Virus record (IMG/VR): IMGVR_UViG_3300032086_004020
Span: 1 to 64,000 of that record
Length of the DNA stretch: 64,000 nt
Origin: a virus
Direction: 5' to 3' (one strand)
The stretch's first letter is position 1, and the number at the start of each line of letters is the position of its first letter. The position numbers were made by a program, and so were the translations under genes. Under the pieces are notes generated by a model that was given only the letters and a program-made list of their open reading frames with translations, was not told the origin of the DNA and searched no databases. Below, piece by piece: positions 1 through 35,078 of the stretch.

Positions 1-1
1 T

Positions 2-3816: not shown

Positions 3817-3828
3817 TAAGGAAATTAT

Positions 3829-9581: not shown

Positions 9582-12500
9582 TGAATCATTTAAATTATTT
9601 ACAAGAACTTTCATACCTAATAAATAAACCTGGTATTAGTGGAATACCTAAAGCTAGGGTTATGATTGCGTTGTATGGACTAACAGATCACTTGCTAAAT
9701 AGTGCTAGCTATAGTTCAGGAGAATTGGCTAATGAATTGCACTTAATGGGCGATTTGGGCATTTCTGTTTTAGATGAATACTCTGATTATTTTTATAATA
9801 AAAGAAAAAGCAATGACATTATTACAGATTCTATTAAAGACCTTAATAAATTATATAAAGCGAATAAAGAACGTACTATTGCTGCTGCTAACAATAAAAA
9901 ATTATACAATTCAATTCTAAATATTGACGAAAAAGATATTGATGAAATAGATGTGGTTTATAGTACAGCATCTTACGGAGATGGAGATCCTACTGACTGT
10001 TGCAATCAATCTGGCATTGTGCCTTGCGACGAACCCTTCACTACTTATGTTAAATATAGTGGAGAGAGCTTTGTGTTTAATACTCCCTTGATGGAATCTG
10101 GTGTGTTTGAACCTGGGGTTAATGTTGAGATTATTAAAGGCAGAAATAATATATTTGATATATACACAGTGGTTAGTGGTTTGGGTGTTGATGGCAGTGG
10201 CACTGTAGATCATCCTTTCAGTATAATTAATTTTCAAACAATAGATTGCTCTAATGATTTATTAGATCCTACTATTAACACAAATGGTTTGTATACATCT
10301 GATGGGCTAATAATAATTACTCCTAATTTAGACTCTCAATTGACGCAACTAAAATATACTTGTCATGATGGTGAAGAAGCTTTGAAGAGTGGAGATACTG
10401 AAACACATATTCATGGCACTGGCGAGAACATTAATGTAAGACATGAGAGAGGTAAGATAAAAGTATCGGATCCTTTTACAGCACATGTATTGCCTGTTAG
10501 ACCTGAGTATATAATACAGTCTGGCACTCATGACCATATTCCCAGTAAGTTTTGGGATTTTGATGAAGATATTCCATGTAAGTATGGTGGCTTGTCAAAA
10601 ATAAAAGCTTTTACTAATAAGAAAGCTCATTGTTTTGATCAAAATAATTTTGTTTATGAGGTTGAAGGATGGCTTGGAGCACAGCAGTTTTATCCTGATT
10701 TACCTGATACTGTATCAATTCTTGATTTTAGAGAGGGTTTATTATATCCTACCTCTAACACCAGCCAGATTATGGGAGGTCAACCTAATAAATTTTTACA
10801 TAGCTCTAATTTACAAGATTTTGATGACAAGTTTATTCTTAATATTGGGCAAAATATTGATCCAGACTTACGAATATATGACAGTAGAGGAGATGTCGAT
10901 CATACAATATTAAGTACTAGATGGCCAGCAGAAAGAGTCAATTTAAGAATACGCCCTAACTACTTGACATTACCTGATGTGCAATGTCCGGCTACTGAAG
11001 AGGAACTACAAAAAGAAGTATATGTAGTTGATGATTATGGTTCTCCATTATGTTATCCTACTGGGTTTACTAGTTTTAGGAATATTAGTTTAGTAGACGT
11101 TAGAACAAATGCTTACATTGTAGAAAATACAACTCAAGCAGATAATTTTTCTGCATATACATCTATGTATAGCAAAACACTCACTCCTTTAGATGGTATA
11201 TATTTAGACGAAAATTATAATCCTATCTTGGTCAATGAGAATGGTGGTATATTTGGACGTGGGAATATTACGGCCAGAGCACGAGCAGGTTTAAAAACTT
11301 ACGAATTTTATTATGCAAATTTCATAGTAGAGAATAGAGAGTGGGACGCTAATGCTGGGCATGCATATTTACAAACAAATATATCTGTTAACGCTAATGC
11401 TGGTAATTTCTTTATAACGGATGTTGCTGAAATTAGTAGAAATGACTATGAGATTGGATCGGTGGATTGGTACATGGGTTCTGCTATACCTGCTGGCGGA
11501 AGTAATGTTTTTGAAGCTAGGGGTGGGATTAGTATTTTTAACCCTTTTAAACGCAGATGTCCAGGAAACGAAGACACTCCAGAGGGTAGGGCTGCTATTG
11601 CTGAGTGTTACCGACGAATAGTTGAGATTCCTGGATATGAACTGTGTAATGGTGATAGTGATCCAGGTTTTGTACAAAATGATATAATGACTTTTTTGCC
11701 CTATGATCTTAATTTGCCTCCTGGAACTAAACTTAGTGACTTTATTCAACCTGGATACTTAGTAGAAGGACCTTATGTTTTGCCAGGTACTTATGTTGTG
11801 TCTGTAAGTGAGTGTGAATGTACTAGCTACTACGGTTATAATTATGGGGATTGTCTAGATTGCTGTGGGCCTGTTGTAACTTTGAGTAGGGGTTTTATTT
11901 TTAGCGATTATTCATCTACTTCTCAATTTCCAGACACCAATTATTTTCCTTATAGATTTAGAGATCCTGCTGGCTTAACAACACAATCTGTAAATATAAA
12001 CTATTTTGTTAGATCGAATAAAGCTGTATTATATAATTATGCTGTGTATGTAACTAGTCCTCCTCCTCCAGGGCCAGTGACAGTTTTTACTGCTTTTGAA
12101 TATTTTGAAGTATGGCTGTCATTATTTAGTTCTCCTCAACCAATTATATATCCTAAATACAAATTGCCGTCTCTTATTCCTACTCAAAGTTATGGTAAAG
12201 ATAATTTTACTTTTAGTAATTGGAACGTATGCTATAGACCAGTTTCATTGTCGGCTTATGAGTCAAAAGTTAGTCAACCTGGTGCTGGTGTTTCGTCTAG
12301 CACTTATCTAGCTTATTATGGTTATAGCAGACTTGGTTGTCAAGGATTATTGCCTTTTTATGATTTAACAGCAATAGATGGAGGGCTTTGTCCTGATGAG
12401 CTAGATCCTTATTGCGTGTTGTGTGCAAGTGGGGGTGGTCACAACAATCCTTATAATATTGCTCCTTGTTTAGCTGAAGATGTATTAGATTATGAAAATA

Positions 12501-14857
12501 ATTCTTTTTATAACCTACCCGTTGTAGAATCACAACAGGTCACAGGATCGGTTTATGACGGCCATACAGTACAGGTTTTAGGCTTTATTGTAATAGTAGA
12601 ATTAAATTTTGCTCCAGGTTTTGGGCTTAGTGGAAATGTTACTGTAACAGGGAATCCTTCTGTACAGGTAAATTTATTTCCTGGTGGAGATACAGTAACT
12701 GTTCCGTATACACCAGGAGAAAGCACTAGTCAACTTCTTAGATTTCAAATATCATTAACAGGTAGCGATTTGTATGATGGTGGGACAATAGTCGTTGATA
12801 GCAATGGTGAAATTGTTTTATCTGGTGGATCTATTTTAGACGAAACTGGATCTACCGTACTTCTTCAAGAGGGCACAATTATTGGTTCTAGATATGGTCC
12901 ATCCTTTGATACTAGTGGAGATAGTACTGGTCATGAAGGTAACAGTATTTTCCCAGCAGGGAAAGTTTCAGATCCAATCAGAAGATTTCCAGAAAGCGAT
13001 TTGGGCATTTCAGCAGGTGGAATTGGCGATGCTGTAGAACAACAATATTATGGTTATATAGATCCGGTATCAGACATTGTAAATAATCATAATAGAACAC
13101 ATAGACCTAAAGATGTAGGTGGTTATGATCTGCCTAATTTTAATACATTTTATACAGTACATCCTAAGTCTATAGAAATAAATGCTCCATCTTCTAGTGA
13201 ATTATTTCGTGTTTATTCTTCTGATGGTTATGCTAGCTTCCTTGTTGGTATGATAGGTGAGGTTGGCTTGATAGAACATAAATATTATACGCCTCCCTGC
13301 AGATTGGGTGGTCCAGACGGGCCTTGGTCCGATCCAGTAACTCCTGAAGATTATGAAGAATTAGAAATATGTACTTCAGAAATAGTACCATTATCTTTAG
13401 GCACACTCCATTTTGAGACTAAATTAAATAATTTGCATATTAATGTATCACAAGACCATGATCCTCTTGGCAGTGGTTCTTATCCTGATTCTTGGACTAG
13501 AAAATATATGGAAAATCCTGTTAATTATACAGGAGCAGGCGTATTAGTGCCTCCTACTGGTTTTACTGTTATCAATAATGATTTAATTCTGCAACATAAG
13601 CCTTCATCTATGAGTTATGATGAAGCTGCTGGTAGTACTAATATGGGTCTGTTAAGCAACCAGCTAAGCTTTGAAGAAAATGCGGGTGAATATGTTGTTG
13701 ATAAGAGAGTTAAACATAGTAATACTAATGTTCAAACAATATTAGGTGGAGATGGAGAAATTACTGATTGGTATTGTTATCAGTTGCCAGAAAAAATAAT
13801 ATCAGATGATGGTTGTGGCAATTCGTATTTTGGTCCTCTCTCATACGATAGATTGCTGTTAGATGATCCTTATGAGGATTACCTCAGCATCTATCAAGAT
13901 AAATGCTGTAAGACTAGAGGTTGCAGCTGTGCAGACGGCGACTATAATGCTTTTGGTATACATGACATAAGTACGGTTAATGGAGTAGGCGGTAGACCCG
14001 GTGATGAGTCAACACAAGCACTCTTACATTTTAAGGTATTAGAACGTTTTTGTTACGAGTCTAAAACACAATGGGATTACAATGTTTTTATAAACGGGCC
14101 AGCGATTGATGATAGAAGGAGGCGTGATGGGACTTTAATTGCTCCCCCCGGCAATACGTTCTATGATATGGGTTACCTTATAGACCAATCAAATGCATTT
14201 CAAGTTTTTCCAGTATCTGGTGAAAGCTGTTGTGAGTTTCCAGCATCTACTCCTTGCCCTATTATGCAAACTTATATAGACATAGGGAGTACTCTATATA
14301 ATAGTCTTCCAGGTTGTATAAATGCTTATGAGGCTTTGGACGGAAGGCATGTAACGTACAATTTAACTGTTCCAGGAAACCCCGACGGAATCGGAAGTAC
14401 AGGAAAATCGCAAGGCACTTCAGGTCAGACGGGTCATCTGCAATATTACTTTGATAAAGATATTGATGGATATGGTTCAACGTTATATTTAAGAGCAGGG
14501 TATGGTATTGTATATCAGTTTCCAGAAATTTATGATACTAGTATTGGTGACTCCGTCCCAGGGGAATGGTACGTTGCCGATACCTGTGAGTCTGGTATAG
14601 TTCCTGGTCCTGGAGTTCCTGGTTCAAGCGGTCCATATCCGAGGTTGGAGATACCATATGATACTTACGATGTTTTTCAATACACACCATGGTTAGCCGT
14701 AGACTGTGATAGTGTAGACTCAAAAAGCAATCAATTTGTACTGGAAGCGCCTGATGGTGCTTGGACTGTTACTGTTAATATAGGTGGAGATTGCAAGGTG
14801 GGTTTTTTAAATAGTATGGCAAATTGTCTAATGGGAGATAAAAACATATATCCATGA
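9581..14857 (+). CDS. Giant virion protein, 1758 aa, possible fibre/receptor-binding protein
   Basis: The start is GTG, overlapping the preceding TAG by one base. Residues 1-130 are helical and charged and could anchor the protein in the baseplate. The remaining roughly 1600 residues are beta-rich with many Tyr, Asp, Gly, Pro and Cys, including a Cys cluster CECTSYYGYNYGDCLDCCG near residue 745 and an SPPPPGP stretch near residue 825. A helical attachment domain followed by a very long beta-rich body, at the distal end of the tail operon, fits a tail-fibre or receptor-binding protein. The high Cys content is unusual for a cytoplasmically assembled virion protein. I recognise no domain family, so the role is inference. 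Confidence 0.5.
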   Translation: MNHLNYLQELSYLINKPGISGIPKARVMIALYGLTDHLLNSASYSSGELANELHLMGDLGISVLDEYSDYFYNKRKSNDIITDSIKDLNKLYKANKERTIAAANNKKLYNSILNIDEKDIDEIDVVYSTASYGDGDPTDCCNQSGIVPCDEPFTTYVKYSGESFVFNTPLMESGVFEPGVNVEIIKGRNNIFDIYTVVSGLGVDGSGTVDHPFSIINFQTIDCSNDLLDPTINTNGLYTSDGLIIITPNLDSQLTQLKYTCHDGEEALKSGDTETHIHGTGENINVRHERGKIKVSDPFTAHVLPVRPEYIIQSGTHDHIPSKFWDFDEDIPCKYGGLSKIKAFTNKKAHCFDQNNFVYEVEGWLGAQQFYPDLPDTVSILDFREGLLYPTSNTSQIMGGQPNKFLHSSNLQDFDDKFILNIGQNIDPDLRIYDSRGDVDHTILSTRWPAERVNLRIRPNYLTLPDVQCPATEEELQKEVYVVDDYGSPLCYPTGFTSFRNISLVDVRTNAYIVENTTQADNFSAYTSMYSKTLTPLDGIYLDENYNPILVNENGGIFGRGNITARARAGLKTYEFYYANFIVENREWDANAGHAYLQTNISVNANAGNFFITDVAEISRNDYEIGSVDWYMGSAIPAGGSNVFEARGGISIFNPFKRRCPGNEDTPEGRAAIAECYRRIVEIPGYELCNGDSDPGFVQNDIMTFLPYDLNLPPGTKLSDFIQPGYLVEGPYVLPGTYVVSVSECECTSYYGYNYGDCLDCCGPVVTLSRGFIFSDYSSTSQFPDTNYFPYRFRDPAGLTTQSVNINYFVRSNKAVLYNYAVYVTSPPPPGPVTVFTAFEYFEVWLSLFSSPQPIIYPKYKLPSLIPTQSYGKDNFTFSNWNVCYRPVSLSAYESKVSQPGAGVSSSTYLAYYGYSRLGCQGLLPFYDLTAIDGGLCPDELDPYCVLCASGGGHNNPYNIAPCLAEDVLDYENNSFYNLPVVESQQVTGSVYDGHTVQVLGFIVIVELNFAPGFGLSGNVTVTGNPSVQVNLFPGGDTVTVPYTPGESTSQLLRFQISLTGSDLYDGGTIVVDSNGEIVLSGGSILDETGSTVLLQEGTIIGSRYGPSFDTSGDSTGHEGNSIFPAGKVSDPIRRFPESDLGISAGGIGDAVEQQYYGYIDPVSDIVNNHNRTHRPKDVGGYDLPNFNTFYTVHPKSIEINAPSSSELFRVYSSDGYASFLVGMIGEVGLIEHKYYTPPCRLGGPDGPWSDPVTPEDYEELEICTSEIVPLSLGTLHFETKLNNLHINVSQDHDPLGSGSYPDSWTRKYMENPVNYTGAGVLVPPTGFTVINNDLILQHKPSSMSYDEAAGSTNMGLLSNQLSFEENAGEYVVDKRVKHSNTNVQTILGGDGEITDWYCYQLPEKIISDDGCGNSYFGPLSYDRLLLDDPYEDYLSIYQDKCCKTRGCSCADGDYNAFGIHDISTVNGVGGRPGDESTQALLHFKVLERFCYESKTQWDYNVFINGPAIDDRRRRDGTLIAPPGNTFYDMGYLIDQSNAFQVFPVSGESCCEFPASTPCPIMQTYIDIGSTLYNSLPGCINAYEALDGRHVTYNLTVPGNPDGIGSTGKSQGTSGQTGHLQYYFDKDIDGYGSTLYLRAGYGIVYQFPEIYDTSIGDSVPGEWYVADTCESGIVPGPGVPGSSGPYPRLEIPYDTYDVFQYTPWLAVDCDSVDSKSNQFVLEAPDGAWTVTVNIGGDCKVGFLNSMANCLMGDKNIYP

Positions 14858-15309
14858 AAATTAAAAATAAAAAAGCAAAAATATTAGTTTTAGTATTACA
14901 GGCACTAGGTTGTCGTGTAACTTTTACAGATGAAGATGCGACATTTAGTCCTATTGGTGTTGTTAACGAGAAATTAAAAGAAGAGATATTAGAACATAAG
15001 ACTGAGATACAAGAAGAACTAGGTTCAGATATTAGACTTATGTCTATATCAGGTAGTAAAAATTGTGTAGGTCATGAATTACAATTGTTAATAAACAAAT
15101 ATTATCCAGATATATCCTGTGAAAGCATTCAGTCTAAATTAGATGAATATGATGCAAGAGGTTGCTTATGGTGTGAAACTAACAAAAGTATTGTTATTAG
15201 AGAAGTACAGCAATTTGCTCGCAAGCACGATATACAATCAACTTACGAGCAGATTAGAACTGTAGTAAAAAAGGCTATATCAAACGCTAAGAAAACGATT
15301 ATTTCTTAG
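14854..15309 (+). CDS. Small protein with TubC_N-like docking domain
   Basis: A 151-aa protein starting in an ATGA overlap with the giant virion gene. Residues 8-54 read as the pattern of TubC N-terminal docking domains: two short helices around LQALGC, a beta turn (VTFTDEDATF) and a final helix with EEILEHKTEIQEEL, the typical HK-x-E-I-x-x-x-L signature. That family mediates subunit docking in NRPS/PKS lines and also occurs in phage and plasmid proteins next to other domains. Residues 75-151 are unassigned, with two Cys (GCLWC) and a basic helical end. It is the last gene of the plus-strand operon, and its 3' end overlaps the convergent gene by 11 bases. The domain call is by eye. Confidence 0.45.
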   Translation: MKIKNKKAKILVLVLQALGCRVTFTDEDATFSPIGVVNEKLKEEILEHKTEIQEELGSDIRLMSISGSKNCVGHELQLLINKYYPDISCESIQSKLDEYDARGCLWCETNKSIVIREVQQFARKHDIQSTYEQIRTVVKKAISNAKKTIIS

Positions 15310-21738: not shown

Positions 21739-22128
21739 CTAAAATGCTAGAGATTCTTTGTCAGACTGACTTTTCTTACTAGCATTTCTAGTAATTTTAG
21801 CAAAGTTGCTGACACGAATCTTCATAGTGGATTGCTTGATCTTTTCTCCGGACTCTAGCTCTTTTTCCCAGCTGTCTTTCCTTAAAGAACCTTCAAGCAT
21901 GACCAGATCTCCTTTGCGAAAAGACGATCCGATATTTTCTGCACCAGTATCCCATGCTTCACAAGGGACAAATGTTGTGACCTGATCGGTCTTACCATCA
22001 GCCTTGGTATACTCCCTAGACACCGCTACTGTAAAGTTAACCACAGATGTAGATTTGCCGTTAGAAGTATTAATATTACGCAATTCTGGATCTCTAGCTA
22101 AATTTCCCTTCAATAAAACTAAATTCAT
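21739..22128 (-). CDS. ssb: Single-stranded DNA-binding protein
   Basis: An OB-fold SSB of 129 aa. MNLVLLKGNLARDPELR, VVNFTVAVSREYT, FVPCEAWDTGAENI and FRKGDLVMLEGSLRKDSW are the consecutive strands of bacterial-type SSB. The tail is short and ends DKESLAF, a weak form of the acidic Phe-ending tip that recruits partner proteins. It would protect single strands during replication and recombination. I chose the ATG at 22128 because AAAGGAG lies just upstream and the first SSB strand starts there; a longer reading adds 11 residues that belong to no SSB. A near-consensus promoter lies at 22168-22195. Confidence 0.93.
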   Translation of the reverse strand: MNLVLLKGNLARDPELRNINTSNGKSTSVVNFTVAVSREYTKADGKTDQVTTFVPCEAWDTGAENIGSSFRKGDLVMLEGSLRKDSWEKELESGEKIKQSTMKIRVSNFAKITRNASKKSQSDKESLAF

Positions 22129-22196: not shown

Positions 22197-23774
22197 CTAC
22201 ACTTGCCATACCTTTTTTATTATCATTCCGTCTTTCTTCTTGGACTGTTCTAGTTTCATCACAGCCGTATTGTCAATAGACAAAAGGTTTTTAAAGGTTT
22301 TGAATTCTTCTGGGAAGATGACAGCATCCAAAGAACCTGTGCTATCTGTAACTTTTACAAATGCCATTTCTTGTCCTGGATTTGCTCCTCTTTTTGTTTT
22401 AATAATATTAACATCTTTTATTTCTATACCAATCATTATATTATTAGATGCTATTTTAGATTCTTTAAGTGTTCTGCAATCTGTGTTAACAAAATTTAGA
22501 TCACATTCGTCAATCTTAGAGCAAGATACAGCGATCCCTAGTAGTTGGTTTTCTGTGTCTGCTATCCAAGGTATAGTGTCTGACAGGCTATATGCTGGTT
22601 TTTTAACAGAACTCAATATTGACTCTACCGACTTTTTTCTTCTGGCATTAACTTTGGTCAGAACGCCTTCAATACATTGAGTAATATTCTTATATCCTGC
22701 TATATTAGTGATTACAAATTCTTTTTCTTTTTTGGTTAAGTTTGTTATTGCATCAAAATCAAATAACATTCGTTTTCTATCTACCTTAAAATAATCAAAG
22801 CATCCTACGGATATCATATTTTTTGCAGCCGTTTTGTTTATGTTGTCTAAAACTATAAATAGTATCTGTAGATATGAAGCGTCTTTTATATCTATTTTAA
22901 TTTCTTGTAGTTTGTTAAATACTGAAGCGCCAACCCCCTTAATGTTGGTCAGTCCAAAGTATATACATTTATCTTTTAATACAAAGTCTTTATTTAATAA
23001 TTTAAAATTAGGATTACAAACCTCAATAGCCATTTCTCTACAATTGCTGACTAATTCATATATTTCTCTTAAAGGATCTATCTTATCTTTGGCAAACTTT
23101 AAATACGATACAAAAAATCTAGAAGGGAAATGAGCTTTGACATATGCAGATAGGTAAGCATTCATAGCATAGCTGACGGCATGGCTTTTATTAAAACTAT
23201 ATCTTTGACTTTTTTCAATCCACCCAAAGATTTCTTCAGCTTCTTCTTCATTGACAATGTTTGCTTCCTTAGCACCATCAATAAACTGCTTTTTAACTTG
23301 AGCCATTAGGTCGGCTTTTTTCTTACCAATAGCTTTACGAAGAACATCAGCATCCTGCAAATTAAAGCCTGCTATTTTCTGAGCGATTTGCATAGCTTGT
23401 TCTTGATAAATCATTTCTCCATATGTAGACGACAGTATATCTTTTAAACTATCATGATAATGATCTACAGTTTCTAGGCCGTTCTTTTTATCTATGTAAT
23501 GATTAGAGACATTCTTACCGTCTCGATAAGCCTCTAAACATCCTGGGCGTAGAATAGATATAAGAGCAGAAAGCTGTTCTATATTTTGTGGTTTGAGTTT
23601 TTTAGACATAGTTTGACCAAGTCTAGACTCTAGCTGAAAACAACCTTTTGTATTGCCTTCTCCAATTAAATGCCAAGTGGTTTTACAGTCTAGATCTAAA
23701 TTCTCAAGAGTAAGGTCTAAATCTATCTTACCTTCGTGTTTTTTAAATCTACAATCACATCTTCTTTTATTCAT
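22197..23774 (-). CDS. dnaE: DNA polymerase III alpha subunit, C-terminal half
   Basis: The 525-aa product covers the remainder of DnaE from the fingers on. It has FQLESR, the LRPG loop, MIYQEQAMQIAQ, LRKAIGKKK, SFNKSHAVSYAMNAYL, the tandem HhH region (GLTNIKGVGASVFNKL) and a C-terminal OB fold. The first residues align with the loop in E. coli DnaE just after the third catalytic Asp, so nothing appears to be lost between the two halves. The catalytic aspartates lie in the other half (24687-26537), and the two products must assemble. I choose the ATG at 23774, which overlaps the exonuclease gene by 8 bases; its ribosome-binding site is weak, implying coupled translation. No intein motif is present. 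Confidence 0.85.
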   Translation of the reverse strand: MNKRRCDCRFKKHEGKIDLDLTLENLDLDCKTTWHLIGEGNTKGCFQLESRLGQTMSKKLKPQNIEQLSALISILRPGCLEAYRDGKNVSNHYIDKKNGLETVDHYHDSLKDILSSTYGEMIYQEQAMQIAQKIAGFNLQDADVLRKAIGKKKADLMAQVKKQFIDGAKEANIVNEEEAEEIFGWIEKSQRYSFNKSHAVSYAMNAYLSAYVKAHFPSRFFVSYLKFAKDKIDPLREIYELVSNCREMAIEVCNPNFKLLNKDFVLKDKCIYFGLTNIKGVGASVFNKLQEIKIDIKDASYLQILFIVLDNINKTAAKNMISVGCFDYFKVDRKRMLFDFDAITNLTKKEKEFVITNIAGYKNITQCIEGVLTKVNARRKKSVESILSSVKKPAYSLSDTIPWIADTENQLLGIAVSCSKIDECDLNFVNTDCRTLKESKIASNNIMIGIEIKDVNIIKTKRGANPGQEMAFVKVTDSTGSLDAVIFPEEFKTFKNLLSIDNTAVMKLEQSKKKDGMIIKKVWQV

Positions 23775-24510
23775 CTTTAAAACAATTCTTAAACTGTATC
23801 CTTTGTGCAAGGTTTTTATGTAATTTCAAAAATCTGATTAGTATATTGGCACAATCCGTAACATCTTTGAATGCGTCGTGAGCATTAGAAGAATCTATTC
23901 CCATGTAAGTCCTAATAGAATCTAATGAAATAGATTTGATTTCTGGAACATACATCAGCCATAAGCCTATAACATACATTAGATCAATCCTATCTCTAGG
24001 ATGAAATATAGATGAACTTTTTTCTTTTGCATCAAAATTGTCATACGTTTCACTCAATCTGTCTACAATCTTCATATCAAACTTATTAATATTATATCCA
24101 CAGGCTATAGGTGCGGTAAATTTACTTTTTTTACTTTTGCCAGACCCTACTAAGTGATAGTTGTCTAGATACCCTATAAATTGTTGCCAAGAGTGTTTTT
24201 GCTCTGGATATTTCAGCCATTCATTAAGAATTTGACTCTTATCAACACCCTTAACTTTCCCGTGCCAATCTAAAATATCAGAATCGGTGTAAGGATGATT
24301 ATCTATTGTGACAGCCTTGGACTTCTCTTGCAATTCAAAATCAGCTAACTTAATAGGCTTAAGGTTTATATTAAATTCAGAGTCCTTGACTATCTCCAAC
24401 CTGTAGGGGTCAACCATAACGGCGGCTAGTTGAACAGGACTACACTCGTTAGGATTGGCCCCATCGGTTTCAAAATCAAATACACATATCTTATTCTTGT
24501 TTATGTTCAT
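23767..24510 (-). CDS. DEDDh 3'-5' exonuclease (DnaQ-like)
   Basis: The 247-aa protein has ExoI DFETDG (D12, E14), ExoII in FMAY-type position as CGYNINKFDMKIV, and ExoIII HDAFKDVTD (H211, D216). This is the DEDDh family used for proofreading (epsilon) or strand resection. It is longer than a minimal epsilon domain because of an insert around residues 60-115. The gene lies between the two dnaE halves, overlapping the 64-aa gene upstream by 20 bases and the dnaE C-half downstream by 8 bases. A proofreading role for the split polymerase is therefore a strong inference. No clamp-binding motif is obvious. Confidence 0.85.
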   Translation of the reverse strand: MNINKNKICVFDFETDGANPNECSPVQLAAVMVDPYRLEIVKDSEFNINLKPIKLADFELQEKSKAVTIDNHPYTDSDILDWHGKVKGVDKSQILNEWLKYPEQKHSWQQFIGYLDNYHLVGSGKSKKSKFTAPIACGYNINKFDMKIVDRLSETYDNFDAKEKSSSIFHPRDRIDLMYVIGLWLMYVPEIKSISLDSIRTYMGIDSSNAHDAFKDVTDCANILIRFLKLHKNLAQRIQFKNCFKDE

Positions 24511-24685
24511 CTTCTATAGTTTCTACTTCCTTATTTCCATCGATAATTAAATCCTTGTCACCATCAAGAATTGCTGCATTTCTTTTTAGCTTACAGCAAC
24601 TAATCTTTTGAGGCTGAACTTTTACACACTCTTTACCATCATGTAAAAACTTAGCGCCAATACTTAACCTACCGAACTTAGTCAT
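24491..24685 (-). CDS. Small conserved phage protein, 64 aa
   Basis: The gene has a good AAGGAG ribosome-binding site before the ATG at 24685. The first 45 residues form a compact beta-type unit (FGRLSIGAKFLHDGKECVKV, then two Cys in ISCCKL). The tail is acidic (EVETIEDEHKQE). Similar small one-domain proteins occur in many tailed-phage replication regions without known function. It lies directly after the dnaE N-half and overlaps the exonuclease gene by 20 bases, so it is part of the interrupted polymerase operon. Confidence 0.55.
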   Translation of the reverse strand: MTKFGRLSIGAKFLHDGKECVKVQPQKISCCKLKRNAAILDGDKDLIIDGNKEVETIEDEHKQE

Positions 24686-24686
24686 A

Positions 24687-26537
24687 TCATACTCCTTGTA
24701 ATAGTGATTGTACGCCCATCATTTTATCTAACAGGCCGATACCTAATATATCAAACTTTACTACACCAATAGACTCCAGGTCATTCATCTCTAACCCTGC
24801 GATATTCTTTTTTGTTTTGGTGTCATAGATCATTGGACAGATTGAGGATAGGCTACTTTGTGATATCGCTATACCCGCTGCGTGTTTAGACTGATTACAT
24901 TTAGTTCCTTCTAGTCTAATAGCCTGCTCAAATCTTTTTGCAAGTGGGCCGACTAATTTATCGTCTTTTAAATGACACCAATCTTTAAGGGGTTTTGGGT
25001 TGTTTTCTAAAGCCCACTTAATTATAGAAGCGTCTTTCATTTCCTGTAATTCGTCTGCGATCTTAGCTTCGTCTGGTATATGCTTTGTGATTTGATTCAT
25101 TTCTTCAAAAGAAATATTGCTATAAACCCTCAACACCTCCTTGAGTGAACCTCTACCCTTTAGGGTGTTATATGTAATCATTTGGGAAACCTTGTCTTGA
25201 CCATATGTATCTTTAATATAATCAATGATGTTTTCTCTTTGATCCATAGGTACGTCTACATCGATATCTGGCATGGATACTCTACCGCCAGTATTCCTGC
25301 CAGCATTGTAAAATCTTTCAAAAATTAAGTCATATTTAATAGGATCTATAGCGGTAATACCAATAAGATAGGAAACCAGACATCCAGCAGCACTACCTCT
25401 TCCTGGTCCAGGTAGCCACTTCTGTTTACGGACATGATCAACAATATCCTGTACAATCAAGAAGTAGCTAGACAAATCTGCTCCTTGTAGTACGTCTAAC
25501 TCGTATTTAATTCTGTCCACATATTGAGAATGCAATTCTTTGTCTACATTATTGACTATTTTGTTTTTCCAGCCATCTCTACAAAGCTGTCTCAGGTATT
25601 GGGCTGGATCGTATCCTTCTGGACACTTAAAGTCTGGAAGGTTAGGTGTTTCTAAAATATCATAGTCTTCACACATACTGTCTACTAGATTAGTATTATC
25701 TATTTCGTCTTCTGTGTTTACTTCATTCATTTCTTCATGAGACAACAGGTGATAGCTGTCAGACTTGAAAAAAGAATCTAAACCAAAACTTTCTCCGGTA
25801 GAGAGCTTACTAGCTACTTGAGGTAAAGTCATTTTGAGATTACTACACAGTAAAATCCTTTGGTCTACGGCGTCATATCGTTCACAATAATGAGAATCTA
25901 TACTAGATATTTTAGGTATCTTGTTTAAGTTACAAATATCTCTTAGTTTTTTGCCAATAATTTGTTGATATTCATTCTCTTGGTCCATTAGTTGAACTTC
26001 AACAAAAAAATTATCTTTACCAAAAATTTCGGATAATTCGCCCACCTCTTTCTCTATCTGTGAGTCTGAAACAAACTTCTCCTCTTTATATATTTTATTA
26101 GCCAAATAAGAACCAGGATGTCCACTCATGCCAATAATATTGCCTTGAGATAACCTATCTTTTAATTTCGCTATATCTAATCTAGGTTTGTAATAATAGT
26201 TATCTGGCCTATTTGATTCTGACACTATTTCAATTAAATTCTTCCAACCAGCTAGATTTTTAGACAACAGAAGCATGTGTGATAATTTTCTGTTTTCTTT
26301 AGATTGTATATTACTGTCTTGATCTGATATATACAATTCAACGCCAAGGATAGGTTTGATTTTGTTGTGTTTCATAGTTTGGAAAAAATTGATACACCCA
26401 GAGATGGATCCATGATCGGTAACAGCACAACTGGTCATATTTAATTTATGACATCTTTTAGCAACATCCTCTGGCTTAGAAAGACCATCCAATAAAGAGT
26501 AATGCGTATGCAAATGCAAAGGCGTATAGTGTTTCAT
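24687..26537 (-). CDS. dnaE: DNA polymerase III alpha subunit, N-terminal half (PHP and palm)
   Basis: The 616 aa begin with a PHP domain whose metal ligands look intact: HLHTH (H8, H10), TDHG (D41, H42), GVE (E67), SGHPG and SIDSHYC. The polymerase part has PGPGRGSAAG (residues 376-385), the catalytic PDIDVD (D424, D426), SKHAAGIAIS and the third aspartate D596 in VKFDILG. The reading frame stops 20 residues later, at the palm/fingers border, and the rest of the enzyme is encoded at 22197-23774. No intein N-terminal Cys block follows. The ATG directly follows the stop of the RecB-like nuclease gene. All three catalytic Asp residues are in this half. Confidence 0.9.
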   Translation of the reverse strand: MKHYTPLHLHTHYSLLDGLSKPEDVAKRCHKLNMTSCAVTDHGSISGCINFFQTMKHNKIKPILGVELYISDQDSNIQSKENRKLSHMLLLSKNLAGWKNLIEIVSESNRPDNYYYKPRLDIAKLKDRLSQGNIIGMSGHPGSYLANKIYKEEKFVSDSQIEKEVGELSEIFGKDNFFVEVQLMDQENEYQQIIGKKLRDICNLNKIPKISSIDSHYCERYDAVDQRILLCSNLKMTLPQVASKLSTGESFGLDSFFKSDSYHLLSHEEMNEVNTEDEIDNTNLVDSMCEDYDILETPNLPDFKCPEGYDPAQYLRQLCRDGWKNKIVNNVDKELHSQYVDRIKYELDVLQGADLSSYFLIVQDIVDHVRKQKWLPGPGRGSAAGCLVSYLIGITAIDPIKYDLIFERFYNAGRNTGGRVSMPDIDVDVPMDQRENIIDYIKDTYGQDKVSQMITYNTLKGRGSLKEVLRVYSNISFEEMNQITKHIPDEAKIADELQEMKDASIIKWALENNPKPLKDWCHLKDDKLVGPLAKRFEQAIRLEGTKCNQSKHAAGIAISQSSLSSICPMIYDTKTKKNIAGLEMNDLESIGVVKFDILGIGLLDKMMGVQSLLQGV

Positions 26538-27569
26538 TCAATCAGTACTTCCAGGAGCTTGGTAATATCCTACATGATAGCCGGGTACAGTGTACTCGTC
26601 AACCACAGAATCTATTCCATTCATTTCTACATCATGTTTTACTTGTTCACACATAGTCATAAATTCTCCTTGTTCACACAACTTACCTTCACGATATTCA
26701 ATCATTGGGGTTACATTTGTGCCATTAAAAGAATTTTTACCATAATGACATAACTTTTTACATTTCCAGCTTTTGCTTAACTGTGGTTTTTTACATTTTT
26801 TAATTTTTTCAAATTTTGTCCTAAGCAAATTTTCTGTTGCTATAATGTCTGACTTATCAAAAGTCATACTAAAAGGACCACCATCATTAATAAAATATAT
26901 TGTTACAATACAGTGTTTAATTTCAGGATATAGTTTTTGTGCAGCATAGAAGTAGATCATAAGTTGGGGATCTTTTTCTAGTTTTTCTTGTGTCTTCTCT
27001 TCTCCTGTAGCCCAGTTAAGCCTACGTCCAGTTTTCCAATCAATAATCTCTAAGGTGTCTTCATTAACCCTAGTAATTAAATCTATTGTACCTTTCATAG
27101 CTAGGTTACCTTTAAGGTCACCATAATCATATTTAGCCCATGGTTTGTCTATAGTAATATCAAACTGCTGTTCAGGATAAAGAATGTCTCTGTTTCTAGG
27201 ATCAAACATACCATCAGCATATGTGATGGCTTTGTGGGCCCATTTAAAACAATCTTTTTTGTCTTTTTCAGACCATTCATGATGGTCAAAATTAGATGTA
27301 TAGTAATCATATACTTGTGTACTTAATTCAGTCAGATCGTAATCGTTTACATCAACTTCACCCACAATATCATCTGTAAAAGTTTTTTCTCCTTTTTGTT
27401 TAGTGAACTGTACAAAAGCTAATATTTCTAATATCTTGTGGACTATAGTGCCTTTATCTGCTTTTTTATTAGAAGGAGACCTATAGCCTAAAACATAATC
27501 AAAAAAGTATTGTTGTTCACACATACAATGGGTATTATATGATGAGCTGCGGAAATAAGTAATTATCAT
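26538..27569 (-). CDS. PD-(D/E)XK nuclease, Cas4/RecB type
   Basis: The 343-aa protein carries the ordered motifs of the PDDEXK_1 family: YFRSSSYNTHCMCEQQYFFDY at the start (with Cys), GTIVHKILE, MKGTIDLIT, LEIIDWKTG (the D-x-K core) and a QLMIYFYA helix. A Cys group near residue 270 (KSWKCKKLC) with the N-terminal cysteines could hold an iron-sulfur or zinc site, as in Cas4/AddB proteins. The likely role is DNA-end processing in replication or recombination. The next gene, dnaE N-half, begins directly at its stop; the dNMP kinase gene upstream overlaps by one base. Confidence 0.8.
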   Translation of the reverse strand: MIITYFRSSSYNTHCMCEQQYFFDYVLGYRSPSNKKADKGTIVHKILEILAFVQFTKQKGEKTFTDDIVGEVDVNDYDLTELSTQVYDYYTSNFDHHEWSEKDKKDCFKWAHKAITYADGMFDPRNRDILYPEQQFDITIDKPWAKYDYGDLKGNLAMKGTIDLITRVNEDTLEIIDWKTGRRLNWATGEEKTQEKLEKDPQLMIYFYAAQKLYPEIKHCIVTIYFINDGGPFSMTFDKSDIIATENLLRTKFEKIKKCKKPQLSKSWKCKKLCHYGKNSFNGTNVTPMIEYREGKLCEQGEFMTMCEQVKHDVEMNGIDSVVDEYTVPGYHVGYYQAPGSTD

Positions 27570-28198
27570 TATGTTGCCTTATTTTTTGTATGAACTAGGT
27601 ATTTTTGGTTCTTGGGTGAGGTTATATGTTTTTTTAGAAAGTCAATAATTAATTTATTTCTGTCATCAATAGATATGTCGGGATTGTCTATAACTAAATC
27701 AAAATTAGATTGGTCGTATTTATCCTCGTCTAGTGCTGTTTCGCTTGCGTGTGTAGAGCTATAAAGGTTTCTATTAAGTTTGACTACTAGACCACCAGCA
27801 TTTTTAACAGCCTCAACCTCATTCGGAAATCGACAATCAGCAATTAAGGATAATCCTCTCCCGTGTTTTTGGATTAATCTGATAGTAGCCGCTGCCCAGA
27901 CATCGTGCTGCATTCTTCTAAAAACATCCGTTCCAACATACTGGAGTACTTCTCTGGCTGTCATTTGTGCGTCAATACCGGGCCAATAGCAATCCACAGT
28001 TTCATTTTTGTTTTCATCTGTACCATAACATTGTTCTTCTGTTAAGCCCAATATATTGATACAAAGTTGTTTTAAAGGATCTGCAAAATTGTATATCTGT
28101 GAGCATCCTAGAGGTGTGTGTTCATCAAACAAATTTTTAACAAATTCACAAGATGTAGTTTTACCAGATTGTTTTCTGCCAGCAAACGCTATAATCAT
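27569..28198 (-). CDS. Deoxynucleoside monophosphate kinase
   Basis: P-loop kinase of 209 aa, with FAGRKQSGKTT (Walker A) at residues 5-14 and the family marks FADPLKQLC, YWPGIDAQMTAREVLQYVGT and SLIADCRFPNEVEAV, as in T4 gp1-type dNMP kinases. It would phosphorylate dNMPs, including those released from host DNA, to dNDPs, feeding the phage dNTP pool with the ribonucleotide reductase and dCMP deaminase nearby. It overlaps the primase gene by 4 bases and the nuclease gene by one base. Confidence 0.85.
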   Translation of the reverse strand: MIIAFAGRKQSGKTTSCEFVKNLFDEHTPLGCSQIYNFADPLKQLCINILGLTEEQCYGTDENKNETVDCYWPGIDAQMTAREVLQYVGTDVFRRMQHDVWAAATIRLIQKHGRGLSLIADCRFPNEVEAVKNAGGLVVKLNRNLYSSTHASETALDEDKYDQSNFDLVIDNPDISIDDRNKLIIDFLKKHITSPKNQKYLVHTKNKAT

Positions 28199-29355
28199 AA
28201 ATACTCCTGTATGGTTTTTTTGATTTCTGTGTCAATTTGATTAGAAGTCATGTCGGCAATATCATTAGCAGATATTCCTATATTATATACATTATATGTA
28301 CGATTGCAATTTTTGGAAATATTTTGAGCTGCCTTACGACCAGCATCATCATTGTCCATAATTGTAAATATGCACATTGCTCCACTAGAATCTAGTAGTA
28401 GCTTTTGTTGATTACTAAGATTAGTGCCAAATATAGCTACGCTATTATGAATACCATTTTCTTCTAACTTCCACACATTACCAGGACTCTCTACTAGAAT
28501 TACATACATACTTTTTTTAATATGCTGTTTAGCAAACCAAAAGTTATATAAGTATTCTTGTGTTTTAAATCCACCATTGTGTTTCCACTTAGAATATTTC
28601 CATAGGTTTTCGGCAGAAGGGCAAGGGTCTGATGGATCATGAAAACCTCCACACCTATCACACTTTTCATATATACTTCTACCGGTACAGCCCACCATCG
28701 TTTCATAATTCATGTCGTAAATAGGTACGACAACCCTGTTGTACATCTCCCTTTTAGGATTAGAACATAGTCCAACATCATATTTGTCCATAATGTTTTG
28801 GCTATATCCTCTGTCTATGTAGTATTGAGCAGGTATTGCTAGACTACTTCTCACCGTGTTTCTAGTAACAGCAGGCTTGTTAGACTTTGCTGTTTTTTGC
28901 ATAGATCGCATAGCAATATTAAATTTATGCTTGCTTTGCTGGGTTCTATTAATTCTGATGTTTTGTAATTTGGTATTTGTAAACTCTTCACAGAATTGTA
29001 AAGTTTCTTTAAAGCTACAAGTTTCGTCACCCGACTTAGACCAGTTGTATTTTTTGTTAGACAAAAGCCCTCTAACGAAACCTATAATAGATGGCTGAAA
29101 AACTTCTTCACAATTATGTGTTCTACACTTCCAGTTACCTCTATATGATTCTCCTTCTGGATATATGTTAATTGCTGATGGATTGTCACCACCATGAATA
29201 GGGCAGCACATACTATAAAATCTACCATTATCTTTATGGTCAATTTCAAAATAATCGAATAAATCTTCTGCTTTATCGCATAAGTTGTCGCAGAGTATCT
29301 TTAATTTTTGTTGTTGATTTTTATTCGAATGGGATTGCTTCTTCACTGTCTTCAT
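28195..29355 (-). CDS. dnaG: DnaG-type DNA primase
   Basis: The N-terminal zinc-binding domain has CCPIHGGDNPS and WKCRTHNC, a CHC2-like C-x2-H / C-x2-H-x-C set. The central primase part is followed by a TOPRIM domain with the catalytic Glu in ILVESPGN and the DxD in IMDNDDAG. A second Cys cluster (CDRCGG...CPS) lies in the middle. It makes RNA primers with the DnaB-like helicase encoded immediately upstream. I place the start at the ATG at 29355, which has GAGGAG upstream; a TTG four codons earlier is possible. The 35-base overlap with the helicase gene suggests coupling. At 386 aa it is shorter than bacterial DnaG, lacking a full C-terminal helicase-binding domain. Confidence 0.85.
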   Translation of the reverse strand: MKTVKKQSHSNKNQQQKLKILCDNLCDKAEDLFDYFEIDHKDNGRFYSMCCPIHGGDNPSAINIYPEGESYRGNWKCRTHNCEEVFQPSIIGFVRGLLSNKKYNWSKSGDETCSFKETLQFCEEFTNTKLQNIRINRTQQSKHKFNIAMRSMQKTAKSNKPAVTRNTVRSSLAIPAQYYIDRGYSQNIMDKYDVGLCSNPKREMYNRVVVPIYDMNYETMVGCTGRSIYEKCDRCGGFHDPSDPCPSAENLWKYSKWKHNGGFKTQEYLYNFWFAKQHIKKSMYVILVESPGNVWKLEENGIHNSVAIFGTNLSNQQKLLLDSSGAMCIFTIMDNDDAGRKAAQNISKNCNRTYNVYNIGISANDIADMTSNQIDTEIKKTIQEYL

Positions 29356-30769
29356 CAAACTCCTCAATACTATCAGGTTTTTGCATTAGTTCCAATCTGG
29401 TTTTGCCTTCGCTAATCTTAGCACACCAACCCTTCATGTTACAATTAATATAATCATTGTCATCCAACCCTCCTCCATGCCTGCTGACCAGAGGTAATAG
29501 TTTTCTATTTCCGTTATCTGGACCATCTTCTGCTATTTCCTCATCTGTCTTACGTTTGAATATAGTGAAGTTGCTACAAAGCCAAATAATTCTATCTGAT
29601 CCACTGGCGGTATCTGTGCTCTCTTTGGTGATACCATCCCTGTTAAGCTGAACAAATGCTACTATAGGGACTTTATACCTAGTAGCAAAGTTATGTAAGG
29701 CTGTCATCATGAATCCTAGAACCTGATATTCTTTCATGTCTTGACTCATGCCTTGGCTGTCCATGAGTTTTAAGTAGTCGTAAAATATTACGCAGTCCTT
29801 AGCTGATCCGTCTTCATTTAGTCCAACTTCTTTAATCAACCATCGTCGCATCAAGGAGATTTGATCTTCAAAAGGTTGTCCAGCAATAGACTTGTGATAT
29901 ATACCCATATCTTTGAGTTGCTCTGCTGCTTTTTGTATTTTGTTTTTCTTGTTTGGAGATTGAGCAAACTTACCGGTTTCGATGCTACTAATATCCACTT
30001 CTGTCATCATGGCCAGTATCCTATTTATGTGATCCTCTTTCATCATTTCTGTATCTAAATTTAGGATTGGTACTTTTGATTTAGAAGCAACATTAAATCC
30101 AATATTATCTGACAATAAAGTTTTCCCTGTTTTAGGTCTAGCAGCAATTACATTTACTGTACCTCTACGCAAACCGCCTCCAATAGCCTGATCATAGATA
30201 GGGAATCCTGTAGGTATACCTATTTGGTCTATAGGATTATCAATTAATGACTGTATATATTCGTCAACATCCTGACCAACGGTTGTGGGGTGATTCTCTG
30301 TGTCATTAAGAAGAGAAGAAAAATTAAATATGACGTCTTCTGCAATACCGACGATACTGCCAACAGGTTCGGTTCCTTTTACTTCTGAAACCTTACTTTT
30401 AGCTTCGTCTAACTGTTTTTCTAATAGTCTAGCTATTTCTAGCTTTCTAACTTTTGCAGCAAACTTTCTAACATTGTCTAATTCTACTGGGAAGCTGGTA
30501 ATTGCCTGCAAATGTTGAACTTCTTCTTTTTTAGTAACTATTGAGGATAGATGTAATTCCTCAGCAGCTGAAAAAATAGTAGCTATATCCAATTTAGTGT
30601 TTGGATTTTTCTCAAAAACATATTTAAAGCATTTGTATAAAACAATATTGCTATCTATAGTAAATGAGCTTTCTTGTAGCAGATCTGCTACATCATAGTA
30701 AGCATCTTCACCGTAGTTAAATATACCTGACAGAACCGCACGTTCTGCTGACGCATCTGATAATTTCAT
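29321..30769 (-). CDS. dnaB: Replicative DNA helicase, DnaB type
   Basis: A 482-aa protein with a helical N-terminal domain (ERAVLSGIFNYG, residues 9-20) and a RecA-like ATPase. The ATPase shows IGIPTGFPIYDQAIGGGL, Walker A ARPKTGKT (210-217), Walker B CVIFYDYLKL, and VAFVQLNRDG with the arginine finger region. It unwinds the fork 5'-3' as a hexamer. Primase follows with a 35-base overlap and a zinc-ribbon protein gene precedes it. The acidic C-terminal tail (EEFDEDSEEAIPFE) may recruit partners. Confidence 0.9.
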   Translation of the reverse strand: MKLSDASAERAVLSGIFNYGEDAYYDVADLLQESSFTIDSNIVLYKCFKYVFEKNPNTKLDIATIFSAAEELHLSSIVTKKEEVQHLQAITSFPVELDNVRKFAAKVRKLEIARLLEKQLDEAKSKVSEVKGTEPVGSIVGIAEDVIFNFSSLLNDTENHPTTVGQDVDEYIQSLIDNPIDQIGIPTGFPIYDQAIGGGLRRGTVNVIAARPKTGKTLLSDNIGFNVASKSKVPILNLDTEMMKEDHINRILAMMTEVDISSIETGKFAQSPNKKNKIQKAAEQLKDMGIYHKSIAGQPFEDQISLMRRWLIKEVGLNEDGSAKDCVIFYDYLKLMDSQGMSQDMKEYQVLGFMMTALHNFATRYKVPIVAFVQLNRDGITKESTDTASGSDRIIWLCSNFTIFKRKTDEEIAEDGPDNGNRKLLPLVSRHGGGLDDNDYINCNMKGWCAKISEGKTRLELMQKPDSIEEFDEDSEEAIPFE

Positions 30770-31148: not shown

Positions 31149-31632
31149 TTTTAATCATCCCCTTTGCTCTTTGTGTAGAAATTAAAATATCTGATAAATT
31201 TTTAAGTGTACTTGAGAGATAGGTTAATCTATCTGATCTTTGTTTAGCATATTTTTTTATTTGGTTTAGCTTGATTGCTCTTTCATTGTGCTTGATTGCC
31301 TGTAAGGATTTTTCTACATATCCGTAACCCTTATAATTATTAATTTCGTCAGCTATAGTTTCTTTAATAGTCTCATCAGCCCAATTGTATCTAGCCATTT
31401 CTCTATTTAAACTTCTTTGTATATGGAAACCAAATTGACCAATCCTGTATGCGATCTCAGCACATTCTGTAACAGTAAGTTTTTCTAGAACGTCCCTATT
31501 CATAGTAAGGTATTCTTGTAGTTCCGCTTCTGGCAAGCTATCTCCGGCATATGCTGGGATACCAATACCCTTTTCGTATTCGTCTAATATGTTGTCCCAA
31601 TGGGTTATTTCTTCTTTAGCCGTTCTGCTCAT
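31141..31632 (-). CDS. Conserved phage protein, 163 aa
   Basis: All-helical, soluble protein. Recognisable blocks are HWDNILDEYEKGIGIPAY, ECAEIAYRIGQFGFHIQRS and YGYVEKSLQAIKHNERA. It has no catalytic motif and no Cys ladder. It overlaps the nuclease gene upstream by 17 bases and the zinc-ribbon gene by 8 bases. Similar helical proteins occur between recA and dnaB genes in aquatic phages, without known function; a replisome accessory is conceivable. Confidence 0.45.
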   Translation of the reverse strand: MSRTAKEEITHWDNILDEYEKGIGIPAYAGDSLPEAELQEYLTMNRDVLEKLTVTECAEIAYRIGQFGFHIQRSLNREMARYNWADETIKETIADEINNYKGYGYVEKSLQAIKHNERAIKLNQIKKYAKQRSDRLTYLSSTLKNLSDILISTQRAKGMIKNG

Positions 31633-32026
31633 TTATTATATCTTTCCATTCTGATATTTTATTATAAGGCAATTCTATAAAACCAATCTCGTTTGTTTCA
31701 CACCAGTTTTTCTTTTCTCTGTCTCTTTTTTTATGTTTTAAAAAATTTAGTTTGTTTTGATGGAAAAATGGAACATACTTATAGTGCTGTTCGCCATGAA
31801 CCTCTATACAAATTTTAGCAAGAGGTAGGTAAAAGTCAAGATATAAAATTTCGGTTCTTCTCAAAGGTATCGGAACTTCCTCTAAAATCTGATAAGTAGG
31901 AAAAATATTTCTTATGACTTCCCTAGCTTGTAAATGTAGTTCAGATTTATTCTGTCTACTACCTTTAGCTATGTGTCCTGTTAATTGCCATTTTTGTAAT
32001 TTACCATCTAAATCAATAATCTCCAT
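31616..32026 (-). CDS. Small Vsr/EDxHD-like endonuclease beside recA
   Basis: A 136-aa protein consisting of one PD-(D/E)XK-type domain. Visible acidic and His positions are E29 (KSELHLQ), D64 (YLDFYLP), E75, H77 and H81 (IEVHGEQHY), and D102 (KKRDREKK). This is the order E-D-x-H-D of the Vsr-like EDxHD nucleases, a family that includes homing enzymes found in recA genes. It lies four bases downstream of recA and overlaps the helical protein gene. It could be a free-standing homing enzyme or a repair nuclease working with RecA. No DNA-binding NUMOD repeats are present. Confidence 0.6.
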   Translation of the reverse strand: MEIIDLDGKLQKWQLTGHIAKGSRQNKSELHLQAREVIRNIFPTYQILEEVPIPLRRTEILYLDFYLPLAKICIEVHGEQHYKYVPFFHQNKLNFLKHKKRDREKKNWCETNEIGFIELPYNKISEWKDIINEQNG

Positions 32027-34511: not shown

Positions 34512-35078
34512 TTAATTTATAAAATTAGAAACGTATTCCATCCACTCTTCTGGTATTTCTTTTATTGTAAGTAAGTACTGTGCTATTGGCAAGTATTTTT
34601 CGCTCTTAGATGGAATATATGGTTTTTTTATTAGAGGCATCTTAGCTTGTTGTGGGGTTTTATCTCCTTTTTTTAAATTACAACTTAGACATGCGGTGGT
34701 TATATTATGCCACCCAGTTGCTTTTAAAGAACTGTGAACCGGCCATTTAGACTTGGGTATAACATGGTCATAAGTTAGCTTTCTTGATTTCTTGCCACAA
34801 TACTGGCATGTATAATTATCTCTAATGAATATATTCTTCCTGCAGAATTTTATTTCTTCTTTAAAGAAATTATAAAACTTAGTTAATTTAATTACAGAGG
34901 GTATAGATATATCTTTATACACAGACTTGATACTATCTTTGTAGTAAGATACAACCTCTACATTGCTTTTGTATCCTTTAGAACTACCATACCATAGCAC
35001 CATAGCCTTTTGCCAAGATATGGTGCATAGTGGTGTGTAGTTACAGTTTATAATTAAACAGTCTTTGTGCTTAGACAT
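34512..35078 (-). CDS. HNH endonuclease
   Basis: A 188-aa protein with an HNH core flanked by a zinc site: CQYCG (C91, C94), TYDHVIP (D104, H105), HNITTACLSCN (N125, C130, C133). The N-terminal 80 residues include LIINCNYTPL and are typical of the McrA-like phage and bacterial HNH family. It may be a homing enzyme, a DNA repair nuclease or a host-DNA cutter. The gene starts one base after the phoH stop. Catalytic residues are intact. Confidence 0.8.
   Translation of the reverse strand: MSKHKDCLIINCNYTPLCTISWQKAMVLWYGSSKGYKSNVEVVSYYKDSIKSVYKDISIPSVIKLTKFYNFFKEEIKFCRKNIFIRDNYTCQYCGKKSRKLTYDHVIPKSKWPVHSSLKATGWHNITTACLSCNLKKGDKTPQQAKMPLIKKPYIPSKSEKYLPIAQYLLTIKEIPEEWMEYVSNFIN

What the first reader, a model, noticed from the sequence alone, without database searches (positions are those of the whole stretch)
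22197..26537. dnaE is split into two genes with a DEDDh exonuclease gene between the halves
The N-half (616 aa) has the intact PHP and the three catalytic aspartates; the C-half (525 aa) begins in the loop just after the third aspartate and carries fingers, HhH and OB. Between them lie a 64-aa gene and a DnaQ-like exonuclease. Known split cyanobacterial DnaE is cut elsewhere and rejoined by a split intein; here there is no intein block at either edge, so the two parts should work as separate subunits. A proofreading exonuclease gene encoded between the halves suggests a cotranslated three-part polymerase.
Basis: partly seen in the sequence, partly recalled or inferred. Interest (0 to 1): 0.85.

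Follow-up and report, generated by a model that had tools for sequence, protein, structure and literature searches.

The report
Phage polymerase split around its exonuclease
In a large group of uncultured phages the main DNA-copying enzyme is made as two separate proteins, with the gene for a probable proofreading enzyme conserved between the two halves, so these viruses appear to copy their DNA with a polymerase assembled from pieces.

Summary
The dnaE halves (N 24687-26537, C 22197-23774) flank a 64-aa gene and a DEDDh exonuclease. No known domain is missing at the break; no intein is at either edge and no known intron family was found. It is not a one-off: 79 of 79 complete related IMG/VR loci (53-100% identity) keep N - exonuclease - C. 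All four genes are under strong purifying selection (dN/dS 0.01-0.07). Trees place the split before the divergence of a well-supported clade. One member (L133) has the junction rejoined but is broken further on, with the exonuclease still between the pieces. Four cysteines (one in N, three in C) nearly always accompany the split and are jointly absent in L133, suggesting an inter-subunit metal clasp. Best reading: separate subunits reassemble an active Pol III alpha, probably with the exonuclease as proofreader. Split phage polymerases are known (T4-type 43A/43B, minimal jumbo-phage Pol III, phage phiT1), so this is a new variant, not a new kind. By-product: in 17 relatives the N-half carries a stop-bearing insert with covarying hairpins, apparently a programmed ribosomal bypass resembling T4 gene 60.

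The parts
24687..26537 (-). DnaE N-half, 616 aa: PHP domain (nine metal-ligand positions intact) + palm with catalytic D424, D426, D596
   Evidence: Pfam PHP 1.2e-37 and DNA_pol3_alpha 3.2e-71; ligands and Asps invariant in 24 sequences; PDB matches to Pol III alpha
24750..24752 (-). codon of third catalytic Asp (D596), about 20 codons before the N-half stop
   Evidence: alignments
24837..24839 (-). codon of N-half Cys567: 86/86 in the lineage, mostly hydrophobic in continuous DnaE, Met in the re-joined L133
24491..24685 (-). small conserved gene (64 aa; pattern F..G..F...G..Y.K....SCC...NA), start 1 nt after the N-half stop; overlaps exonuclease by 20 nt
   Evidence: homologue at this place in nearly all relatives; dN/dS 0.05-0.07; no Pfam or PHROG family
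23767..24510 (-). DEDDh (DnaQ-like) 3'-5' exonuclease, 247 aa
   Evidence: Pfam RNase_T 5.9e-6, phrog_192 'DNA polymerase exonuclease subunit' 1.7e-15; DEDDh residues invariant incl. L133, L134; dN/dS 0.01
23767..23774 (-). ATGAATAA: C-half start codon overlaps exonuclease stop by 8 nt
   Evidence: sequence
22197..23774 (-). DnaE C-half, 525 aa: fingers, helix-hairpin-helix, OB; ends after OB (no room for a tau-binding C-terminal domain)
   Evidence: Pfam DNA_pol3_finger 1.2e-45, HHH_6 1.5e-9, OB 9.8e-5; AlphaFold model pLDDT 82 matches Pol III alpha
23751..23759 (-). C6-x-C8 motif at the new N-terminus of the C-half
   Evidence: 59/60 distinct C-halves, L134, L113; absent from L133, L004/L083 and continuous DnaE
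23685..23687 (-). codon of C30, third conserved Cys near the C-half N-terminus
   Evidence: 60/60 C-halves; Asp/Glu in outgroup DnaE
26538..27569 (-). PD-(D/E)XK nuclease, conserved upstream neighbour
21739..22128 (-). SSB, conserved downstream neighbour
28195..30769 (-). Toprim primase and DnaB helicase of the same replication block

Best explanation
This is a naturally split C-family replicative polymerase (Pol III alpha). N-half (PHP + palm) and C-half (fingers + HhH + OB) are made as separate proteins from one gene cluster and fold together non-covalently into one active alpha. The DEDDh exonuclease encoded between them most likely acts as its epsilon-like proofreader. Shown: gene order, intact catalytic motifs, purifying selection, deep conservation, no intein at this break. 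Inferred: physical assembly, coupled translation, exonuclease partnership, and a Cys4 metal clasp (N C567 + C-half C6, C8, C30). The split arose before the clade's divergence, at a place that tolerates cutting (phage phiT1 was cut there independently).
For: Order N - exo - C in 79/79 complete loci, with a small gene in nearly all. dN/dS N 0.03, C 0.03, exo 0.01, small gene 0.05-0.07. Polymerase Asps, nine PHP ligands and DEDDh residues invariant. Only alpha in the record and no PolA. Clade support 99-100, with the re-joined L133 nested inside split members in the finger tree. In L133 the junction is continuous but the OB domain is a separate gene after the exonuclease, so domain content and the exonuclease link are kept while the break moved. 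The four Cys are present in split members and L134 and jointly missing in L133. Independent split at the same site in phiT1. The N-half C-terminus (597-616) has low confidence when modelled alone, as expected if it needs its partner. Split 43A/43B of phage 25 co-purify and polymerise (PMC2988022).
Against: No RNA or protein data. L004/L083 lack C6 and C8 but keep the split, so a Cys4 clasp cannot be essential. Exonuclease partnership rests on synteny and family only; the PHP site is also intact in this lineage, so the PHP could proofread instead. The small gene's role is unknown. The position of L133 depends on the gene used: palm and joined trees pair it with L134 (support 92 and 88). Monomer models only; no complex could be modelled and no coordinates were available to measure the Cys distances.
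Confidence: 0.78

Rival explanations
1. Two-part polymerase, but the exonuclease and small gene lie between the halves only by history (relic of the event that broke the gene) and are not subunits of it.
For: No interaction data. Extra HNH ORFs also lie in the gap in L134 and L079, so the gap tolerates passengers.
Against: The exonuclease stays between the dnaE pieces in L133 and L134 too, even though the break point differs in L133; phrog_192 is annotated as a polymerase exonuclease subunit; strongest selection of the four genes.
Confidence: 0.3
2. The halves are ligated after translation by a split intein, as in cyanobacterial DnaE or 'fractured genes'.
For: Split inteins with an intervening endonuclease-like ORF do occur inside the N-half of relatives L018, L039, L079 at GPGRG|SAAG.
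Against: At this break there are no intein blocks: the N-half ends about 20 residues after D596, and in almost all loci the C-half starts only a few residues before a conserved CxC. No intein match in the window halves.
Confidence: 0.03
3. RNA splicing removes the small gene and exonuclease as one intron.
For: LAGLIDADG and HNH ORFs, often carried by introns, are common nearby in relatives.
Against: The interval is wholly coding with overlapping, selected genes; no Rfam intron hit; in L134 the interval grows by whole genes; the C-half has its own conserved N-terminus.
Confidence: 0.02
4. Origin hypothesis, compatible with the main mechanism: the layout arose by tandem duplication of dnaE with complementary loss of parts, rather than by insertion of a cassette.
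For: Two different break points with the exonuclease in the gap each time (window lineage; L133).
Against: No genome with two full copies was found; re-joining by recombination in L133 also fits, and the finger tree favours a split ancestor.
Confidence: 0.35

Closest known systems
Split Pol III alpha of group 2.2 jumbo phages (Iyer et al. 2021, PMC7824862)
   Same: C-family polymerase encoded as two stand-alone proteins in phages
   Different: Theirs is a minimal version lacking the other Pol III domains, encoded by distant genes and accompanied by a family B polymerase; here PHP to OB is complete and the halves flank an exonuclease and small gene
T4-like gene 43A/43B of Aeromonas phages 25 and 44RR (Petrov et al. 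2010, as reviewed in PMC2988022)
   Same: Replicative polymerase in two genes; the products of phage 25 co-purify and polymerise
   Different: Family B; the gap holds a homing endonuclease or an untranslated sequence, not a proofreading exonuclease
Rossellomorea phage phiT1 gp20-gp18 (PV767480)
   Same: dnaE cut at the same junction, with a 49-aa ORF between
   Different: Different branch of the tree, no exonuclease between, no CxC motif in the annotated C-half
Fractured genes with split inteins (Dassa et al. 2009, cited in PMC10448857) and cyanobacterial DnaE
   Same: Gene broken into two parts, in fractured genes with an ORF between
   Different: Those are rejoined by protein splicing; no intein at this break
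Aeromonas phage Aeh1 genes-in-pieces nrdA (Friedrich et al. 2007, as reviewed in PMC2988022)
   Same: Essential phage enzyme working as two polypeptides
   Different: The intervening gene is a homing endonuclease

Membership tests
C-family DNA polymerase (Pol III alpha / DnaE) | palm with three catalytic aspartates | tested here: met
   D424, D426, D596 invariant; DNA_pol3_alpha 3.2e-71
C-family DNA polymerase (Pol III alpha / DnaE) | PHP, palm, fingers, HhH, OB in order | tested here: met
   spread over two genes; OB hit below Pfam cut-off
C-family DNA polymerase (Pol III alpha / DnaE) | single polypeptide (usual, not strictly defining) | tested here: not met
   two genes in 79/79 complete loci
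DEDDh (DnaQ-like) exonuclease | D-x-E, D, H-x4-D catalytic set | tested here: met
   D12, E14, D145, H211, D216 in 15/15
Pol III epsilon subunit | binds alpha (PHP) and clamp | not testable with these tools
   phmmer against the PDB gives no significant match to epsilon; no complex modelling available
Split-intein DnaE (cyanobacterial type) | N-intein at the end of the N-half and C-intein at the start of the C-half | tested here: not met
Fractured gene with split intein and endonuclease | endonuclease ORF between intein halves at the break | tested here: not met
   met only at another N-half site in relatives L018, L039, L079
Genes-in-pieces polymerase (43A/43B type) | two separately encoded, selected, intein-free parts of one enzyme | tested here: met
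Genes-in-pieces polymerase (43A/43B type) | parts associate and polymerise | not testable with these tools
   needs biochemistry
Minimal split Pol III of group 2.2 jumbo phages | lacks the other Pol III domains; halves encoded by distant genes | tested here: not met
   PHP, HhH, OB present and the halves within one cluster
Minimal split Pol III of group 2.2 jumbo phages | accompanied by a family B polymerase | not tested
   PolB was not searched for; PolA is absent

The most novel reading that the evidence does not exclude
An obligate multi-subunit replicase core in which the proofreading exonuclease is synthesised between the two halves of its polymerase and assembles with them during translation, the halves being held by an inter-subunit Cys4 metal site that was gained with the split and lost on re-joining. 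In part of the clade the N-half is additionally decoded by a mobile, HNH-linked short ribosomal bypass in the PHP active-site motif.
Probability: 0.3. Interest if true: 0.85.

Novelty: new variant of a known kind. Interest (0 to 1): 0.66.

Why it matters
It shows that the catalytic alpha subunit of the bacterial-type replicase can persist as two proteins across a large virus clade, which makes the minimal interface between palm and fingers testable. It gives a natural split site and a natural test of whether gene order guides assembly of a polymerase with its proofreader. The same gene in relatives carries split inteins, an in-frame intein, endonuclease insertions and an apparent ribosomal bypass, so it is a good place to study how essential genes survive being broken.

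Tried and rejected
Assembly error: rejected, hundreds of relatives. Intron: no Rfam hit. Intein at this break: no blocks. Top 'Bacteriophage sp.' MT83xxxx hits as fused sister phages: those inspected (L089-L091, L093) carry dnaE followed by an ORF that reads as phosphofructokinase and other chromosomal-looking genes, so they look like bacterial DNA. Finding more close sisters of L105 returned only the same contig. Virus family: ten window proteins gave no PHROG match and several others no Pfam match, so taxonomy and host stay open. Cys4 clasp geometry: could not be measured, no coordinates returned. The Dassa 2009 paper is not held. A first tree run failed on a thread setting and was repeated. 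One family scan failed on a wrong frame.

Full report
What is there. Four overlapping or abutting minus-strand genes: DnaE N-half, a 64-aa gene, a DEDDh exonuclease and the DnaE C-half. They lie in a replication block DnaB - primase - dNMP kinase - PD-(D/E)XK nuclease - N - small - exo - C - SSB. Pfam and PHROG assign PHP + palm to N and fingers + HhH + OB to C, and one PHROG profile is covered almost without a gap at the break. By comparison with E. coli alpha the cut falls between about residues 562 and 581, just after the third catalytic aspartate. From general knowledge, the cyanobacterial split lies near the FNKSH motif, roughly 180 residues further on.

Is it real. In IMG/VR, 397 stretches encode a relative of the C-half and the best 80 were fetched. 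All 79 that contain the whole region keep N, exonuclease and C as separate genes in that order, and a small gene with an SCC...NA pattern sits between N and exonuclease in nearly all. Three bacterial-genome bins hold the same block on short contigs (L109-L111). Against two relatives, dN/dS is about 0.03 for N and C, 0.01 for the exonuclease and 0.05-0.07 for the small gene. Polymerase aspartates, the nine PHP ligand positions and the DEDDh residues are invariant in the sampled relatives. The window's record has no second alpha and no PolA, though it may be incomplete.

Age and history. Trees of the palm and finger parts put the window lineage, L133, L134 and, in the finger tree, L113 in one clade (support 99-100) away from continuous DnaE of phages and bacteria. 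L134 has the same N - small - exo - C order with extra HNH genes. L113 has a stand-alone C-half with CxC and an in-frame intein at FNR|SH. L133 is continuous across the junction but its OB domain is a separate gene after the exonuclease. The finger tree nests L133 inside split members; the palm and joined trees pair it with L134. Either way the simplest reading is a split ancestor and later re-joining with the break moved. Tandem duplication with complementary loss remains possible. Rossellomorea phage phiT1 is cut at the same place with a 49-aa ORF between, on another branch. Bacillus phage Jayan is cut elsewhere.

How it probably works. With no intein at the break and no known intron, the halves should assemble non-covalently. 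The small gene starts 1 nt after the N stop, the exonuclease overlaps it by 20 nt, and the C start overlaps the exonuclease stop by 8 nt (ATGAATAA), which fits coupled translation but does not prove it. The isolated N-half model loses confidence over its last 20 residues, as expected if they need the C-half. A set of four cysteines tracks the split: N C567 (86/86 and L134; Met in L133) and C-half C6, C8, C30 (near-invariant; also in L134 and L113; absent in L133). An inter-subunit metal site is an attractive guess, but L004/L083 have lost C6 and C8. The exonuclease as proofreader rests on its family, synteny and selection. In L133 and L134 the PHP motifs look eroded while the exonuclease is kept, which favours the exonuclease as the proofreader; in the window lineage both are intact.

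Compared with what is known. Split phage polymerases are not new: gene 43A/43B products of phage 25 co-purify and polymerise (PMC2988022), and jumbo phages of group 2.2 have a minimal two-protein Pol III (PMC7824862). New here, as far as the searched collections and papers show, is a complete PHP-to-OB alpha split with a proofreading-type exonuclease conserved inside the split across a large uncultured clade. As a polymerase it is a member of the C family; as an arrangement it meets the sequence features of a genes-in-pieces polymerase, whose biochemical feature (the parts associate and polymerise) could not be tested; it fails the tests for a split-intein or fractured gene at this break.

A second finding in relatives, not in the window. 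In 17 loci the N-half is interrupted after codon HVHS by 9, 10 or 11 nt that begin with a stop codon and end in TCT, TCA or ACT, before the reading resumes (H/M)(Y/F)SLLDG. In the eleven checked, all nine PHP ligands on both sides of the interruption are intact, so the parts are probably joined in the protein (L030 is cut again further on). The start codon region pairs with the HVH codons, and the insert pairs with the codons after it; 96.9% of cells pair against 34-51% when slid, with changes on both sides at three pairs. L005 and L006 are 93-96% identical on both sides, but L005 carries a 240-aa HNH-like ORF plus the interrupted leader while L006 has neither. This resembles the T4 gene 60 bypass, which has a matched take-off and landing codon, a stop next to the take-off site and a 5' stem-loop, and whose insert may have protected against the nuclease of a neighbouring homing endonuclease gene (PMC5009743). 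Bypass is inferred, not shown; landing codons are not always matched to the take-off codon.

Noticed in passing
L005:5224-5294, L026:5226-5298, L027:5225-5297, L028:4064-4134, L030:4097-4168, L031:5205-5276, L055:5224-5296, L068:5215-5286 and others (17 loci): Stop-containing 9-11 nt insert in the PHP motif of the dnaE N-half with two hairpins supported by compensatory changes; looks like a short programmed ribosomal bypass.
   Followed up: partly
L005:4512-5234 versus L006:5215-5340: An HNH-like ORF together with the bypass leader is present in L005 and absent in its 93-96% identical neighbour L006: an apparently mobile cassette.
   Followed up: partly
L018:4026-7102, L039, L079:3303-6382: N-half broken at GPGRG|SAAG by a split intein with an intervening endonuclease-like ORF (fractured-gene type).
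   Followed up: partly
L030:4116-7109, L064 and relatives: N-half broken before MPDIDVD by a LAGLIDADG ORF; the downstream part carries about 90 extra residues without an intein match. Intron or further split not resolved.
   Followed up: partly
L051:3805-4751, L064:2668-3614: In-frame intein-like insertion in the PD-(D/E)XK nuclease gene at the motif DWK|TGRR.
   Followed up: no
L113:4293-6584: In-frame intein at FNR|SH in a stand-alone C-half, next to the cyanobacterial DnaE intein site.
   Followed up: partly
L096 (PQ299153, Bacillus phage Jayan): dnaE split at a different place (410 aa, 76-aa ORF, 634 aa).
   Followed up: no
L089, L090, L091, L093 (MT835501, MT836213, MT835604, MT835632): Records called 'Bacteriophage sp.' carry dnaE followed by a phosphofructokinase-like ORF and other housekeeping-looking genes; they look like bacterial chromosome fragments.
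   Followed up: partly
window 31616-32026 and 34512-35078: Two homing-type nuclease genes in the window itself (PHROG homing endonuclease match; Pfam HNH).
   Followed up: no
window 1-15309: Large plus-strand genes (up to 1758 aa), those tested without a PHROG match; nearly all the rest of the window's long genes are on the minus strand.
   Followed up: no
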